A stretch of DNA of 42,569 bases from Nitrosotalea sp. (GTDB taxonomy: Archaea > Thermoproteota > Nitrososphaeria > Nitrososphaerales > Nitrosopumilaceae). Below the pieces are notes generated by a model. That model did no database searches, had not been told where the DNA came from, and was given only the letters and a program-made list of their open reading frames with translations. Position 1 is the first letter of the stretch; each line of letters begins with the position of its first letter. A program made the position numbers and the translations under genes. Location of the stretch: assembly GCA_023252335.1 (NCBI GenBank), contig JAJPEA010000003.1, positions 1 to 42,569 of the forward strand, in the 5' to 3' direction. This document shows positions 4,636-25,684 of the stretch, one piece after another.

Positions 4636-6363
4636 ATGCTGATAAAATTACAAGGAACATTTTTCTGCGCTCTTGTTATCATGATAATTTTTACCACAAC
4701 GGTAATTGCAAACCCCCATCATGCATTTGCAACTCCATCAATTGGAATCATGATACCATTATATTCACACCATGAAAGTAACTGGCCTCAAGTACTTCAA
4801 GAAAAAAATGCCCACCCATCAGTACCAATTGTTGTTATAATCAATCCCAATAATGGTCCTGACTCGTCTATTGATTCAAACCTCATATCTTCAGTAAAAC
4901 AGATGCAGGCAGCTGGAATTGTCGTTATAGGATATGATGATACTGGATATTGTGGACGAAGTGCCGATGATGTAGAATCAGATGCAATGTCATACTACAA
5001 CTGGTATAAAGTAAATGGAATCTTCTTTGATGACATGGCAAATGGCTCAGGATGTGAATCATACTATACGGATCTTACAAATTATGTGCATTCTCATGGA
5101 ATGCCACTGACTGTTGGAAATCCTGGAACTAGGACATTGTCAAGCTATGTTGGAAGTGTAGACAACTTGGTCATATATGAGAAGACAGGTTTGCCAACCC
5201 TGTCAACACTCTTGTCAAATACCTTCAATGGTGAAAATCCTGCATCCAACTTTTCCATCATGGCATTAGGAGTAAGATTACCCAGTGTGAGTTACATAAC
5301 TAGCAACTTGAGTCATGTAGGTTACATATACATCACTGATGCTAGAGGTTCCAATCCCTATGATGTATTACCATCATACTTTAGCACCGAAGTGGCAGAT
5401 CTTGACACCGATTCTGGCACAACTGCTACTATACCATCTGCTCCATCTGGACTAACTTCCTCAGCATCTTCATCATCACAGATCAATCTATCCTGGACTG
5501 CACCATCAAACAATGGTGGTTCTACCATAGCAGGATATGAAATTGACAGGCCTACAAATGGCAGTTCAACATGGTCTGTACTAATTGGAAATACTGCATC
5601 AACAGATACCACATACTCTGATACTGGCCTTGTAGCAAATACCACTTACACTTATCGCATATCTGCAATAAATGCAATCGGCACAAGCTCTCCATCTAAT
5701 ACAACATCTGCTACCACCCAAAGCAGATCTGCTGGTGGTGGGTCTACTTCAGGTACCATTGTACTCAACAATGTACAATATACCTCTGGCACTGTCTCTT
5801 CATCAAACCAGCTAACACTATCAAACTTTACAGTTGGTACTGGTAACAGTAATCTACTTGTAGTTGGAGTAAGTGCAAACAACAACACTGTGACGTCGAT
5901 AACATTTGGCGGAATGCCCCTTAAAATGAGAACAATGTCATTTTACAACAATGATGCCGAGTTCTGGTATCTCAAGAAACCAAACGGAACAGGAGACATT
6001 GTAGTTACCATGGCAGGACCAACACAGGCAGTAGCTGGTGCTTACTCTTTTTCGGGTGTAAACCAAGCAAACCCCATAGCTACTACAGCCAAGAATCACA
6101 ATACCTCTGTTGGCAGCCCTCATATTTCTATCACTACAAAGTATGATGACGACTTGGTCCTTGACCTGCCATCAATATGGGGTGGTATGACACTTGGTTC
6201 TCCAACTTGGACGCAACAGTGGAATGTAAACGTACCAAACGAGATAACTGGTGCATCTAGTTCTACAACGGTGCCATCGGCTACAACTGTAACATGCAAA
6301 TGGGCTGCAAGCAGTAAAGATTTGTGGGATGATGTAGCAATTGAGATTAACGCTGCAAGATAA
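4636..6363 (+). CDS. Secreted multidomain protein: signal peptide, spherulation-specific family 4-like domain, fibronectin type III domain, C-terminal beta-rich domain
   Basis: Signal sequence; IGIMIPLYSHHESNWPQVL...VVIINPNNGP...GYDDTGYCGR...IFFDDMA; FN3 PSAPSGLTSSASSSSQINLSWTAPSNNGGSTIAGYEI... Confidence 0.8.
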   Translation: MLIKLQGTFFCALVIMIIFTTTVIANPHHAFATPSIGIMIPLYSHHESNWPQVLQEKNAHPSVPIVVIINPNNGPDSSIDSNLISSVKQMQAAGIVVIGYDDTGYCGRSADDVESDAMSYYNWYKVNGIFFDDMANGSGCESYYTDLTNYVHSHGMPLTVGNPGTRTLSSYVGSVDNLVIYEKTGLPTLSTLLSNTFNGENPASNFSIMALGVRLPSVSYITSNLSHVGYIYITDARGSNPYDVLPSYFSTEVADLDTDSGTTATIPSAPSGLTSSASSSSQINLSWTAPSNNGGSTIAGYEIDRPTNGSSTWSVLIGNTASTDTTYSDTGLVANTTYTYRISAINAIGTSSPSNTTSATTQSRSAGGGSTSGTIVLNNVQYTSGTVSSSNQLTLSNFTVGTGNSNLLVVGVSANNNTVTSITFGGMPLKMRTMSFYNNDAEFWYLKKPNGTGDIVVTMAGPTQAVAGAYSFSGVNQANPIATTAKNHNTSVGSPHISITTKYDDDLVLDLPSIWGGMTLGSPTWTQQWNVNVPNEITGASSSTTVPSATTVTCKWAASSKDLWDDVAIEINAAR

Positions 6364-11614: not shown

Positions 11615-14600
11615 TTATTTCCAGAAAAATTGGTCTAGTCCAGTCTGTTTTGGCTCGCCAATCAGGCTAGCAAAATCCAAGTCCATTGATGACAAAATCT
11701 GATCAAATGTACTTTCCATAAACTCCATGTATTTTGGAGTATCAATTTCATCAGGTCTTGCCATTTCCGTAGGTTTTACCCCTGGTTTGTTGATTATTTT
11801 GACATATGAAATAATGTCGCCTTTTTTTATCTCTCTTGTCTGCTCCAACTGTTTAGCAGCACGGATGTGTTGAGGGATGGTCTTGACATATTCTGCAGGA
11901 GACTTGCTAATCATTACGTTGAATGCAAGTTCTACAAGCGGAATCTGTCTTGCTTTTAATTTTTTTGCATATCCAGATATCATGTCACCAATCTTTGTTT
12001 TAGACTGGGTGAACTCTTGTTCATTTTGCACCTGCGATAATATTCCAAGTATTTCATAAAACAAATTTCTGATAAACGGAGGTGTATGAGATTTCTTTCC
12101 AGTCAGTCCTTTGACATCCACCTTGCCATCTTTTTGCACACCGAGATAGTTTTTCTTTCTCTTGCTAAACACAACATAACGATATTCCTTGTCCAAATCC
12201 AAATCTACACCAAATTCACTTTTTGCCCAGTCTACTACCTTGTGCACTTGATCTTGTGATGGTGCTTTTAAAAATAAAGAGTCAGTATTGTGCAATAAAA
12301 CATTGCCCAGTCCTCCACAAAAGTGATGATTTTTTGTTTCAAGATCATATACATATCCATTTATGTTAAATGTTTCAATTTTTTTAATAACGTCTGACTG
12401 TTTTATTCTTGGATCGTTTTTATCTTTGATTATTCGCAGTCTGCAAACATTTGACTTGTCATTTCTTATTTGTAATGAATATTCTAATCCAAGTTGTTCA
12501 AGGATTGTTATGACACCTGCCATTACAGTCTTGTGTATCTGATCAAGTATGGTCAATCCATTTACATCGGTATGTCCGTCGCCATCTAACATTCCATTAA
12601 TGAATGCCTTTTTTGCCTCAATGTTTGCGTTGATTATTGGCTGGGGAACAGCTTTTTGGTCTCCACGGTAGCAGAAAAGTCTGAAATAATCGACAAACAA
12701 TTTGTGCTCACCTTTTGGAACAAGTGCATATGTTGCAGAGCTTTTTCGTATGTCAATCAAGGTTGTTTCCAAAGCCAGGTGTTCTTGTATGATTTTTTGT
12801 GCTTTTTCCAGTATCTTCTTGTCTTGATTTACAAGTCTCCATGAATATTTGATGTTATTTTGATATGTGTACATGTTGCATGTGCCTTCTGCAACGAATA
12901 TTCCAAATAACCACCCAAGGTCTGGGTTTACATGGATTTTGGACTCTGCTTTGAACGGAATCAGATTTATCTTGTCGCCAACTTGAAGTGTTGAAGGTTT
13001 CACACTTTTTCCATTTATCACTAGGCTATGATCTTCGGTACACTCTACAAACCCTTTTCTGGTAAGAATCCTGTACCCTTTTTTCTTTACCTTGTGTCTG
13101 TATACGTATTTTATTTTTGTAAAACCTTTCTCTGTCAGAACATCAATGTCTCCAAATTTTCCATATCTTGAGCTGCTCACAGTTTTTGGCATCAATGATT
13201 CTATTGGAATCAAATCAATTGCTCCATCTTTTCTTCGAATTATTATCGGTGTGTCTGGTAATACACTGTCGCCGTACAATACATCAATTCCAAATGATTT
13301 GCATTTTTCGATTGTTTCCAAAATTGTAAATCTTCCAACTGCAGTTGTGGCTTCTGCAACAGGCAAACAATACAATGGGAATATTTCTGCGCCCATGACA
13401 CCATAGCTTGCATTCAAAATAACCTTGAGCGCTTGACTTACTACGGTATACAGTTGTTTTTGATCAGCAGAAAGATTTGGGTTTTTAGATAGACTCTTGT
13501 AATAATTCACACGCAAGTCCCGCAATGAACCAATTAGAGTAGCTGTTAGACCATTTTTCTTGGTACAAACCCAGTGTGTAGTGCCAGGTATTGTATTTGT
13601 TTTACATTCATCATGAATGCATCTTACTGTCTCATATGATAAATTTCTCACCTTGATTATGCTGGGGTACAGGCTTGCAAAGTCCATCACAGATACATTG
13701 AAGTGAATTCCTTCGGTGGGTTCAACCACTAGACCCCCGCGATATTTCTTGTCCTTTATGACTGCCTCTGTTGTTGCAGCCCCTGATTTTTGATCAAGTT
13801 CTTCTCTTCTTGGTATCAAATAGTTGTGTTTTCTATGTTCATAATAAAACAGACTTCGAATCCATTGCGATACACCCATTCTTGATATATCATCAATTGG
13901 CATGCGCCCAATTCTTGTTATGACAACAAGAAGATTCATCAACAAATCATTGTTAAAACTAGTAAGCTTTTGCGTAATTCTTGAATCGTTGAAACAATAA
14001 TTTGCCAACTCGTAAAGAGAAAGATCCTCCAGTTCTCCTTCATATTCTGTCTTGGATTCTTCAATTAGTCCTTCACAGATTGTGTTTAGTGAAAAATCAG
14101 TATACTTGTGAGAAAAGGCATAGATTTGAAATGAGCGATTAGAAAATGTCCTGTACAAATCAATGTGCACGCCTCTTTTTAGCGTAGCCGAGTCACGCAT
14201 CATTATCAAAGGTATTTCTTTTAGTGGAATCCCTAGTCTTTCTGCTCTATTATACATGAAAGGCATGTCAAATTCGTCTCCGTTGAAGGTTATAACAAAC
14301 GGATAATTTTCTAAAACCTTGAATGCGTCTCTTAGCATGTCTGCTTCCTTGTCTTCGTCATAGAAACTTATTTTGACATCCTTGGGTAGTTCATCAGTTC
14401 CCATTTGTAGTCCTGCACGCTTTAGTACAAAGACTGCCTTGTAGTCATCATTTGCACAAAATCCTATCGCAGTGATTTTTTTGTCTGCAATTTTGGGGTC
14501 TGGGATTCTTCCAGTCTCAGATTCCACCTCGATATCAAAGGTAATTCTTCGTATGTTGGGTATAGGTTGGTTGAGAAGATTTGCCCATTCGCTTATGTGG

Positions 14601-15148
14601 TTTTGAAATCCTTGCACGTCTATTATTCCGGTATTTGTTATCTTGTCAAATAGCAGACCTTTTAGTGCAAGCTGAACCTCGTCTGGTATTTGATACGAGT
14701 ATTCCTTGAGTTTACCATTCTCTATTGTATAATACCTGCCAACAATTAACGAATTGTCATAAAGATAATTTTCATAATATTTAATGTCTGATTCCCATGT
14801 ATCCATGGTGTTTCTTATGCTCTTGTCAGTCTGGGTGCCACCAATTGCAAGCGGATCTGTTACTGTAATTTTTGTCACATCAATCATTTTGTCTTTTAAC
14901 AAGTCTTCTCGCTTGATGCTTTCTAGTTTTAGCACATCAGTTCTGTTTGACAAAAATTTTAGTTCTTCTGGATCTAGTTTTGAATAGCAATATGGTTTGT
15001 GTCCAGTATTGTCAAACCAAATTTTTAGTGTCTGAGATTTTGGCTCATAAAATTTGAGTAACGCACATTTTTTTAGACCATCATATGCGGCAGAGACCAG
15101 TAATGCAGGTGACATGGTGGTTGTTACTTCTTCTATTGCACTTGACAT
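11615..15148 (-). CDS. polB: B-family DNA polymerase precursor interrupted by an in-frame intein
   Basis: Exonuclease FDIEVE...TFNGDEFDMPF; DFASLYPSII; KVILNASYGVMGAE; YGD//TDS; C-terminal PIP-box-like QTGLDQFF. Confidence 0.96.
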   Translation of the reverse strand: MSSAIEEVTTTMSPALLVSAAYDGLKKCALLKFYEPKSQTLKIWFDNTGHKPYCYSKLDPEELKFLSNRTDVLKLESIKREDLLKDKMIDVTKITVTDPLAIGGTQTDKSIRNTMDTWESDIKYYENYLYDNSLIVGRYYTIENGKLKEYSYQIPDEVQLALKGLLFDKITNTGIIDVQGFQNHISEWANLLNQPIPNIRRITFDIEVESETGRIPDPKIADKKITAIGFCANDDYKAVFVLKRAGLQMGTDELPKDVKISFYDEDKEADMLRDAFKVLENYPFVITFNGDEFDMPFMYNRAERLGIPLKEIPLIMMRDSATLKRGVHIDLYRTFSNRSFQIYAFSHKYTDFSLNTICEGLIEESKTEYEGELEDLSLYELANYCFNDSRITQKLTSFNNDLLMNLLVVITRIGRMPIDDISRMGVSQWIRSLFYYEHRKHNYLIPRREELDQKSGAATTEAVIKDKKYRGGLVVEPTEGIHFNVSVMDFASLYPSIIKVRNLSYETVRCIHDECKTNTIPGTTHWVCTKKNGLTATLIGSLRDLRVNYYKSLSKNPNLSADQKQLYTVVSQALKVILNASYGVMGAEIFPLYCLPVAEATTAVGRFTILETIEKCKSFGIDVLYGDSVLPDTPIIIRRKDGAIDLIPIESLMPKTVSSSRYGKFGDIDVLTEKGFTKIKYVYRHKVKKKGYRILTRKGFVECTEDHSLVINGKSVKPSTLQVGDKINLIPFKAESKIHVNPDLGWLFGIFVAEGTCNMYTYQNNIKYSWRLVNQDKKILEKAQKIIQEHLALETTLIDIRKSSATYALVPKGEHKLFVDYFRLFCYRGDQKAVPQPIINANIEAKKAFINGMLDGDGHTDVNGLTILDQIHKTVMAGVITILEQLGLEYSLQIRNDKSNVCRLRIIKDKNDPRIKQSDVIKKIETFNINGYVYDLETKNHHFCGGLGNVLLHNTDSLFLKAPSQDQVHKVVDWAKSEFGVDLDLDKEYRYVVFSKRKKNYLGVQKDGKVDVKGLTGKKSHTPPFIRNLFYEILGILSQVQNEQEFTQSKTKIGDMISGYAKKLKARQIPLVELAFNVMISKSPAEYVKTIPQHIRAAKQLEQTREIKKGDIISYVKIINKPGVKPTEMARPDEIDTPKYMEFMESTFDQILSSMDLDFASLIGEPKQTGLDQFFWK
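12287..13267 (-). mobile_element. Intein (327 aa) in PolB motif C, between YGD and TDS, with LAGLIDADG-type endonuclease motifs
   Basis: Starts SVLPDTPIIIRR; TEDHSLVI block B; LGWLFGIFVAEG and KKAFINGMLDGDG; ends NHHFCGGLGNVLLHN followed by T. Confidence 0.93.
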
Positions 15149-24025: not shown

Positions 24026-25684
24026 CTAGGTACTAGTCTCAGTCTTTGGAACTGATGTCATAGTTGTGCCCGTTGGCTTTGTTGATCCGGTGTCACTCTT
24101 TTTCTTTCGTGGGGCACGAAGTTTTTTTACCTTGACGTCGGTTTTTGATTCTGATTTTACCTGTGTATTTGGTGCTGTTTGTGGTTTTTGTTGTTGTGGA
24201 GGTCTTTGACCTTGTGGGCGTTGTTGATTCTGTTGTGGATGTTGACCTTGTGGTCTCTGTCCCTGTTGTTGTTTTTGCTGTGGATGCTGTCCTTGTTGCG
24301 GTGGTCTTTGTTGGTTATGTTGCTGTGGCCTATTACCCTGTTGAGGTCTATTACCTTGTTGTGGTTTCTGTCCCGGTCTCTGACCTTGTTGTTTTTGCTG
24401 TGGATGCTGTCCTTGTTTTTGTTGTTGCGGTCTGTTACCCTGTTGCAATTTTTGTCCTGGTCTCTGACCTTGTTGTGACTTTTGTTGTTGACCTTGTGGG
24501 CGTTGTTGATTTTGTTGTGGTTTGTTGCCTTGCTTGTTTCCAGGATTTTGTTTTTGTCCTGGTTTTGTATTTGGTGATGATCCTGGAATTGGTTTCATCC
24601 TACCCCATAATACACTCATTCTTGCCTTGTAACCTACACCATATTCCAATTCATCTGGAACCAAAGTTGCAGGATGTACAAATCCTTGACTTCTAATTGC
24701 AACAGCTCGTTTCATTGCTTCATTTCTGATGTAATCCCAATCTTCAGTTCCAAATCCGTCAATTGGACCTGTCAATATTCCATTGTGCATTGAAAACACT
24801 AATGCTGACACAATTGGAATTGCATAGTTGATGCTTGCTGCAGAGTTGATTTTCACTGGCATCAATGGCATGTGATGACTTCCTCTAGTATTTCCTGCAA
24901 CGAGATGAGGATTGTTAAATGCAGATCCTGCTTCTTCTGTTGCTGGAAAGTCTTTTTGAGTTCGGACTATACAAATAGGATCATCTTTTCCAACATAAGT
25001 TCCAGCAATGTTGTGTAATCTATCAGTAGATGCTGCCAATATTGGTTGATTGTCTTTTGTAGTTACGGTAGATATGACATATCTTCCCGGGTACATCAGG
25101 GCTGCTTCTAATGTTGGTTTATCCTGCCACATTTCTAGTGTAGCGATTTTGCCCTTTTCTACATCCATTACTGAAATTCTGACACCTTTTGCCAAGTTCT
25201 GGTTTACAATTAAACCAGTGTTAGATAGTGCGTCAACAAACATTCTGTAGAATGGATAGTTGAAAGCACCAGGTTCAGTCTTGTCTGCAGCATAAATTGT
25301 AAATGCTTCATTTGGTCTTTCATCAAATGTCATCTCTGCAACGCCAGGTCCCATGCCTTTTACGTTTCCAGAAAATGAATCCTTCAACAAGTCTTGGCCT
25401 GCACCGTAAAGTCCTTCACTTTTTGCAACTCTAGTTGCAGCTTCAAATGCACGCCATGCAAGTCCGTGTACTTGAGAATTGTTAACACCCTTTGTGTGAG
25501 TCATGACAATATGTATGTCATCTCCACAATATCCGATATAGGAATCAATCAAGAGTCCTTTACCATCTTTTCTTACTTGGGGCTTTACAAGATTTCTTAC
25601 GGCGTTTAGTAGACCATCACTTGGTCTTGTGTGTCCGCCAATTCCACCAACATCAGCTTTGATTACTGTTACTGTAATTTTCAT
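24026..25684 (-). CDS. fbp: Archaeal fructose-1,6-bisphosphate aldolase/phosphatase (class V) with ~185-aa low-complexity C-terminal tail
   Basis: MKITVTVIKADVGGIGGHTRPSD...; GYCGDDIHIVMTH; TRGSHHMPLMPV; then Q/P/G-rich repeats. Confidence 0.93.
   Translation of the reverse strand: MKITVTVIKADVGGIGGHTRPSDGLLNAVRNLVKPQVRKDGKGLLIDSYIGYCGDDIHIVMTHTKGVNNSQVHGLAWRAFEAATRVAKSEGLYGAGQDLLKDSFSGNVKGMGPGVAEMTFDERPNEAFTIYAADKTEPGAFNYPFYRMFVDALSNTGLIVNQNLAKGVRISVMDVEKGKIATLEMWQDKPTLEAALMYPGRYVISTVTTKDNQPILAASTDRLHNIAGTYVGKDDPICIVRTQKDFPATEEAGSAFNNPHLVAGNTRGSHHMPLMPVKINSAASINYAIPIVSALVFSMHNGILTGPIDGFGTEDWDYIRNEAMKRAVAIRSQGFVHPATLVPDELEYGVGYKARMSVLWGRMKPIPGSSPNTKPGQKQNPGNKQGNKPQQNQQRPQGQQQKSQQGQRPGQKLQQGNRPQQQKQGQHPQQKQQGQRPGQKPQQGNRPQQGNRPQQHNQQRPPQQGQHPQQKQQQGQRPQGQHPQQNQQRPQGQRPPQQQKPQTAPNTQVKSESKTDVKVKKLRAPRKKKSDTGSTKPTGTTMTSVPKTETST
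24029..24583 (-). repeat. Degenerate tandem repeats encoding Q/P/G-rich tail (QQGQRPGQKPQQGNRPQQ type)
   Basis: Repeated TTGTTG/CCTTGT/TCTCTGACC units read directly in the DNA; basic KVKKLRAPRKKK near the end. Confidence 0.9.

What the first reader, a model, noticed from the sequence alone, without database searches (positions are those of the whole stretch)
12287..13267. Intein splitting the DNA polymerase B catalytic motif YGD/TDS
A 327-aa in-frame insertion starts with Ser directly after YGD and ends HN before TDS, restoring YGDTDSLFLK on excision (850-aa mature polymerase). It carries both LAGLIDADG-type motifs (GWLFGIFVAEG, FINGMLDGDG), so it may still home. The site matches known archaeal PolB intein insertions; the variant in this lineage may be unsampled.
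Basis: partly seen in the sequence, partly recalled or inferred. Interest (0 to 1): 0.6.

Follow-up and report, generated by a model that had tools for sequence, protein, structure and literature searches.

The report
Intein in archaeal DNA polymerase gene
A self-removing protein insert (an intein) sits exactly in the catalytic motif of the replicative DNA polymerase of an ammonia-oxidising archaeon; it is of a known kind, but its relatives show every stage of its life cycle at one site, from empty site through mobile and decaying copies to stripped-down remnants.

Summary
ORF 11615-15148(-) is the only family-B polymerase found in the genome (PolB1 type). Codons 628-954 (12287-13267) are an in-frame 327-aa insert, Ser1...His-Asn/Thr+1, whose removal gives YGD|TDS and an 850-aa polymerase. 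It has the splicing blocks and both LAGLIDADG motifs with their acidic residues (E127, D230), and its AlphaFold model (pLDDT 91) matches solved inteins. It is an intein at the classic pol-c site.

It is not unsampled: 71-88% identical alleles occupy the same site in other Nitrosotalea, in Nitrosotenuis and in a Nitrososphaera-like genome (probably N. gargensis, whose PolB1 inteins are published); relatives of about 40% lie in Asgard polymerases. Occupancy is patchy (20 of 224 family genomes). The closest polymerase (98% identical) has an empty site. Intein and extein trees conflict (AU p about 0.01), and across genera the intein is more alike than the polymerase, so it has moved horizontally. 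Relatives carry intact, mutated, scrambled or deleted endonucleases: a whole homing cycle at one site. The window copy is of the intact, possibly still mobile class. Splicing and cleavage are untested. New member of a known kind.

The parts
11615..15148 (-). PolB1 precursor gene, 1177 aa plus stop
   Evidence: ORF; NF004417 1132 bits, Pfam DNA_pol_B and exonuclease
13268..15148 (-). N-extein, residues 1-627, ending VLYGD
12287..13267 (-). Intein, 327 aa, Ser1 to Asn327
11615..12286 (-). C-extein, 223 aa plus stop, beginning TDSLFLK (Thr+1)
13229..13267 (-). Splicing block A, SVLPDTPIIIRRK, nucleophile Ser1
   Evidence: Ser1 invariant in 20 alleles
13022..13063 (-). Splicing block B, TRKGFVECTEDHSL, T77 and H80
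   Evidence: T77, D79, H80 invariant
12884..12916 (-). LAGLIDADG motif 1, GWLFGIFVAEG, acidic residue E127
   Evidence: sequence; Lys, Gly or lost in decayed alleles
12575..12604 (-). LAGLIDADG motif 2, FINGMLDGDG, acidic residue D230
   Evidence: sequence; LAGLIDADG_3 match residues 218-284
12311..12358 (-). Splicing block F, GYVYDLETKNHHFCGG, D308 and H315
   Evidence: both invariant in 20 alleles
12287..12310 (-). Splicing block G, LGNVLLHN, His326-Asn327
   Evidence: both invariant in 20 alleles

Best explanation
A class 1 intein with a LAGLIDADG homing endonuclease sits at the pol-c site of the PolB1 gene of a Nitrosotalea-group ammonia-oxidising archaeon. The 1177-aa precursor should splice by the standard route: Ser1 N-O acyl shift, transesterification to Thr+1, Asn327 cyclisation assisted by His326, then O-N shift; this gives an 850-aa polymerase with an intact YGDTDS motif plus a free 327-aa endonuclease. 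The endonuclease should cleave intein-less polB1 around the YGDTDS codons, and repair from the occupied allele copies the intein in. The allele is in the intact phase of a homing cycle that runs across the family. Shown here: anatomy, exact boundaries, empty and occupied alleles, horizontal movement, graded decay in relatives. Inferred: splicing, cleavage, present mobility of this copy. Separate estimates: it is an intein 0.99; it splices 0.95; its endonuclease is catalytically competent 0.7.
For: Exact in-frame boundaries restoring YGDTDSLFLK. Intein and LAGLIDADG profile matches. Splicing-core residues invariant in 20 alleles. AlphaFold model pLDDT 90.6, pTM 0.89, matching TliVMA intein 7qsu (E 1.4e-17, TM 0.60), PI-PfuI, PI-PkoII, PI-SceI, and I-DmoI for the endonuclease part (TM by target length 0.6-0.7). 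Patchy occupancy at one identical position, 20 of 224 family genomes with a polB match. Nearest extein G199, 97.9% identical, is empty. G000-G205: extein 95%, intein 78%; G000-G222: extein 72%, intein 77%; G000-G578: extein 60%, intein 71%. Tree conflict: AU p 0.006 over 15 alleles, 0.009-0.012 within eight close relatives. Endonuclease dN/dS 0.06-0.11 between the window allele and relatives with intact motifs.
Against: Nothing contradicts an intein. For present mobility the evidence is indirect: the nearest full-length sampled intein is old (dS about 0.9 to G196), the flanks show no co-conversion tract toward any sampled donor, and endonuclease dN/dS stays low (0.14-0.18) even among alleles with both motifs damaged, so constraint alone does not prove nuclease function. 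The empty G199 site could reflect loss there rather than gain here.
Confidence: 0.9

Rival explanations
1. A splicing-competent intein whose endonuclease is already dead: it persists only because it splices out and sits where precise deletion is rare.
For: About half of the related alleles have damaged or missing endonucleases. Even damaged alleles keep low dN/dS, so intact motifs could be leftover. No recent transfer of the window allele is visible.
Against: Both motifs and both acidic residues are intact in the window allele, and the endonuclease part is at least as constrained as in other intact alleles.
Confidence: 0.25
2. An intein kept by the host as a switch: splicing of the essential polymerase is conditional (redox or stress) and controls replication.
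For: It interrupts the catalytic motif of the only family-B polymerase found, so the unspliced protein must be inactive; conditional splicing is reported for the mycobacterial DnaB intein (PMC6195587, abstract seen).
Against: Most relatives, including the closest, lack the intein, which does not fit a needed regulator. No specific regulatory residue was tested.
Confidence: 0.05
3. A lineage-specific insertion domain of the polymerase that is not removed.
For: The insert is in frame and stop-free.
Against: It splits the most conserved catalytic motif, carries all intein splicing residues, and is absent at the same point in nearly identical polymerases.
Confidence: 0.01

Closest known systems
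pol-c inteins of archaeal PolI (PolB3) and Mimivirus PolB, and the split intein of Nanoarchaeum equitans at the same site (PMC549080)
   Same: Same insertion point in the same motif (YxD|TD); LAGLIDADG-type endonuclease in full-length archaeal members (established knowledge)
   Different: Host here is PolB1, a different archaeal paralogue. Sequence closeness was not tested because none of those alleles was fetched.
Nitrososphaera gargensis PolB1 inteins (two reported, PMC4104785)
   Same: G578, inferred to be N. gargensis, has a pol-c allele 71% identical over the full length
   Different: G578 has lost the acidic residue of motif 1 (AEG to AGG) and carries a second intein that the window gene lacks
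Haloferax volcanii PolB intein with active endonuclease (PMC3024317)
   Same: Archaeal polB intein with a dodecapeptide (DOD) endonuclease
   Different: Homing shown in vivo there; the window allele is untested; different host group
TliVMA, PhoVMA, PI-PkoII, PI-PfuI and PI-SceI (solved structures)
   Same: Same fold: splicing domain with a two-motif LAGLIDADG endonuclease inside it
   Different: 12-19% identity in the structural alignments, other hosts or sites; the window intein is shorter (327 aa)

Membership tests
Class 1 intein | In-frame insertion with empty homologues at exactly the same point | tested here: met
   Empty sites read YGDTDS without a gap in G199 and many others
Class 1 intein | Block A nucleophile (Ser/Cys), block B TxxH, block G His-Asn, +1 Ser/Thr/Cys | tested here: met
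   S1, T77 and H80, H326-N327, Thr+1; intein residues invariant in 20 alleles
Class 1 intein | Intein (HINT) splicing-domain fold | tested here: met
   AlphaFold model pLDDT 90.6; best match TliVMA intein 7qsu, E 1.4e-17, TM 0.60
Class 1 intein | Protein splicing observed | not testable with these tools
   Needs expression of the precursor
LAGLIDADG homing endonuclease | Two dodecapeptide motifs with acidic residues | tested here: met
   GWLFGIFVAEG (E127) and FINGMLDGDG (D230); LAGLIDADG_3 and Hom_end above cut-off
LAGLIDADG homing endonuclease | Cuts the empty allele | not testable with these tools
   Only indirect support: tree conflict and intact motifs
pol-c intein allele | Insertion between YxD and TD of the family-B polymerase catalytic motif | tested here: met
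   YGD|TDS, the pol-c position as given in PMC549080
pol-c intein allele | Closer in sequence to PolB3 pol-c inteins than to inteins at other sites | not tested
   PolB3 pol-c sequences were not retrieved

The most novel reading that the evidence does not exclude
The polB1 pol-c intein of the family is a currently cycling selfish element, with empty, mobile, endonuclease-damaged, scrambled and mini alleles coexisting, that crosses genera and may be carried by viruses: full-length relatives (46-48% identical to the window intein) lie in the polymerases of two viral contigs at a point two codons away (YIDTD|S and YWDTD|S).
Probability: 0.25. Interest if true: 0.5.

Novelty: new member of a known kind. 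Interest (0 to 1): 0.33.

Why it matters
The element itself is of a known kind. What is useful is the series around it: one insertion site, in one family of archaea that includes ammonia oxidisers, with empty, intact, point-mutated, scrambled and endonuclease-free alleles. That makes the homing-cycle model (invasion, fixation, decay, loss, reinvasion) testable in a group where, as far as the searched library shows, it has not been described. Alleles with intact motifs are also candidate splicing proteins and rare-cutting nucleases.

Tried and rejected
Co-conversion: mismatches per 60 bases around the site show no tract of raised identity between the window gene and any sampled donor. Constraint as proof of activity: endonuclease dN/dS stays at 0.14-0.18 among alleles with both motifs damaged, so low dN/dS was not used as decisive. 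A single-sequence viral search found no confirmed relative; the alignment search found three. G187 looked at first like an intein at a new site about 124 codons downstream; the scaffold is pieces joined by single Ns, with an empty-site polB stretch and a separate intein end, so this is an assembly joint, possibly of two alleles, not a new site. A first tree script with slow bootstraps timed out and was rerun. An Asgard-wide search failed for a wrong handle and was repeated.

Full report
Observation. The minus-strand ORF 11615-15148 encodes 1177 aa and is a PolB1-type family-B DNA polymerase (NF004417 'DNA-directed DNA polymerase I', 1132 bits; Pfam DNA_pol_B and exonuclease domains). It is the only PF00136 gene found in the 1.55-Mb, 96%-complete assembly. 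Residues 628-954 (12287-13267) are a 327-aa in-frame insert starting SVLPDTP after VLYGD and ending VLLHN before TDSLFLK; the joined extein is 850 aa.

Identity. The insert alone matches Pfam Intein_splicing (35.8 bits, equal to the cut-off), LAGLIDADG_3 (36.6) and Hom_end (32.5), and the NCBIfam intein N- and C-terminal models at threshold. In an alignment of 20 alleles from different genomes (A1) Ser1, T77, H80, D308, H315, H326 and N327 are invariant, which is the splicing core of a class 1 intein with Ser1; the +1 residue is Thr. The AlphaFold model from that alignment (pLDDT 90.6, pTM 0.89) matches the TliVMA intein (7qsu, E 1.4e-17, TM 0.60), PI-PfuI, PI-PkoII and PI-SceI, and for the endonuclease part I-DmoI.

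Host lineage. Named genomes holding the closest alleles are Candidatus Nitrosotalea (N. bavarica SBT1, N. sp. FS and MAGs) and Nitrosotenuis. Matching contig lengths link L063, L064 and L065 to G198, G178 and G196, which are in the window's own genus, so the window is from a Nitrosotalea-group ammonia oxidiser (inference from these names).

Distribution. Of 250 genomes of the family, 224 have a match to the polB region around the site. Twenty carry this intein or a recognisable derivative of it at the site: G000, G178, G180, G196, G198, G200, G205, G210 and, in broken contigs, G187 and G201 (own genus); G217, G219, G222, G225, G228 (g16, containing Nitrosotenuis); G239; G021; G244, G245, G246. 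Listed empty sites, including the nearest polymerase G199 (97.9% aa), read YGDTDS without interruption. In a second family of the order, one of 70 genomes has it: G578, a 2,833,868-base single contig with two inteins in PolB1. That fits Nitrososphaera gargensis, the only archaeon reported in 2014 with two PolB1 inteins (PMC4104785); the name is my inference. In the phylum of the Thorarchaeota hit, 3 of 228 genomes carry relatives in family-B polymerases at the same place in the motif.

Horizontal movement. Within the genus the intein diverges faster than the polymerase (G000-G205: intein 78%, extein 95%), yet across genera and families the intein is more alike than the polymerase (G000-G222 77% against 72%; G000-G578 71% against 60%). 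The intein alignment rejects the extein tree (AU p 0.006, 15 alleles) and does so again among eight close relatives with protein (p 0.012) and codon data (p 0.009), while the extein data reject the intein tree (p 0.011 and 0.0003). No recent donor for the window allele is sampled: dS to the nearest full-length intein is about 0.9, and the flanks show no co-conversion.

Decay series. Motif reading on one alignment: both acidic residues present in G000, G196, G198, G178, G239, G219, G222 and G225; motif 2 lost its Asp in G217 and G228; motif 1 lost its Glu in G578; in G205, G210 and G180 motif 1 has Lys for Glu and motif 2 has lost its glycines; the endonuclease region is hardly recognisable in G200 and G021, and it is partly or largely deleted in G244-G246 (248-276 aa in all). 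All keep the splicing residues. Together with empty sites this is the whole homing cycle at one position. The window allele belongs to the intact class; its endonuclease dN/dS against intact relatives is 0.06-0.11, though damaged alleles are also constrained (0.14-0.18), so this is not proof of activity.

Known or new. The insertion point is the pol-c site described for archaeal PolI and Mimivirus (PMC549080). PolB1 inteins are known from N. gargensis (PMC4104785). An in vivo active PolB intein endonuclease is known from Haloferax volcanii (PMC3024317). No paper in the searched library holds both 'intein' and 'Nitrosotalea'. I file the finding as a new member of a known kind. Whether the PolB1 alleles descend from the PolB3 pol-c alleles was not tested.

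Limits. Splicing and cleavage are inferred. Most genomes are drafts; some sites fall at contig ends. In the G206 draft one contig ends in YGDTDS and the next begins just after it, with no intein found. The G187 scaffold holds both an empty-site stretch and an intein end, joined by single Ns; this could mean mixed alleles in one culture but could also be an assembly error.

Noticed in passing
L114:2414-5746 and L115:2747-5578 (viral contigs): Full-length relatives of the window intein (46-48% identical) lie in viral DNA polymerases, but inserted two codons further on (YIDTD|S...HN|SVF and YWDTD|S), so related inteins use two points 6 bases apart in the same motif.
   Followed up: partly
L116:2915-5218 (90-kb viral contig): A relative of the intein (about 35% identical), with both LAGLIDADG motifs, interrupts a glycosyltransferase-like gene (my reading of the sequence), an unusual host for an intein.
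   Followed up: partly
L101, L102, L070 (G214, G223, G228): A different intein (340 aa in G228) at DFA|SLYPS (motif A) of the same polymerase in Nitrosotenuis-group genomes; G228 has both this and the pol-c intein.
   Followed up: partly
L066 (G239): A second, 459-aa intein at GLTGKK|SHTPP in PolB1, after the pol-c intein, giving a 1643-aa frame with two inteins.
   Followed up: partly
L110 (G578, probably N. gargensis): The second PolB1 intein lies near the N-terminus, between ...REKVTSWE and SDIKYHENYLYD, outside the polymerase catalytic motifs.
   Followed up: no
L107:1174-3225 (G000 contig C47): A second intein in the same genome, in rtcB (tRNA-splicing ligase), with a LAGLIDADG-like region.
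   Followed up: partly
L106 (G538): A 353-aa intein distantly related to this one (28%) sits in a gene with no match to the polymerase.
   Followed up: no
L111, L113 (G844, phylum of the Thorarchaeota hit): One genome has two family-B polymerase genes, each with a pol-c intein of this family and another intein just before the SYG motif.
   Followed up: no
window 24029-25684 (-): Fructose-1,6-bisphosphate aldolase/phosphatase with an extra C-terminal tail of about 190 aa rich in Gln, Pro, Gly, Asn and Lys; no Pfam or PDB match for the tail.
   Followed up: partly
window 4636-6363 (+): A 575-aa protein with Spherulin4 and fibronectin type III domains.
   Followed up: no
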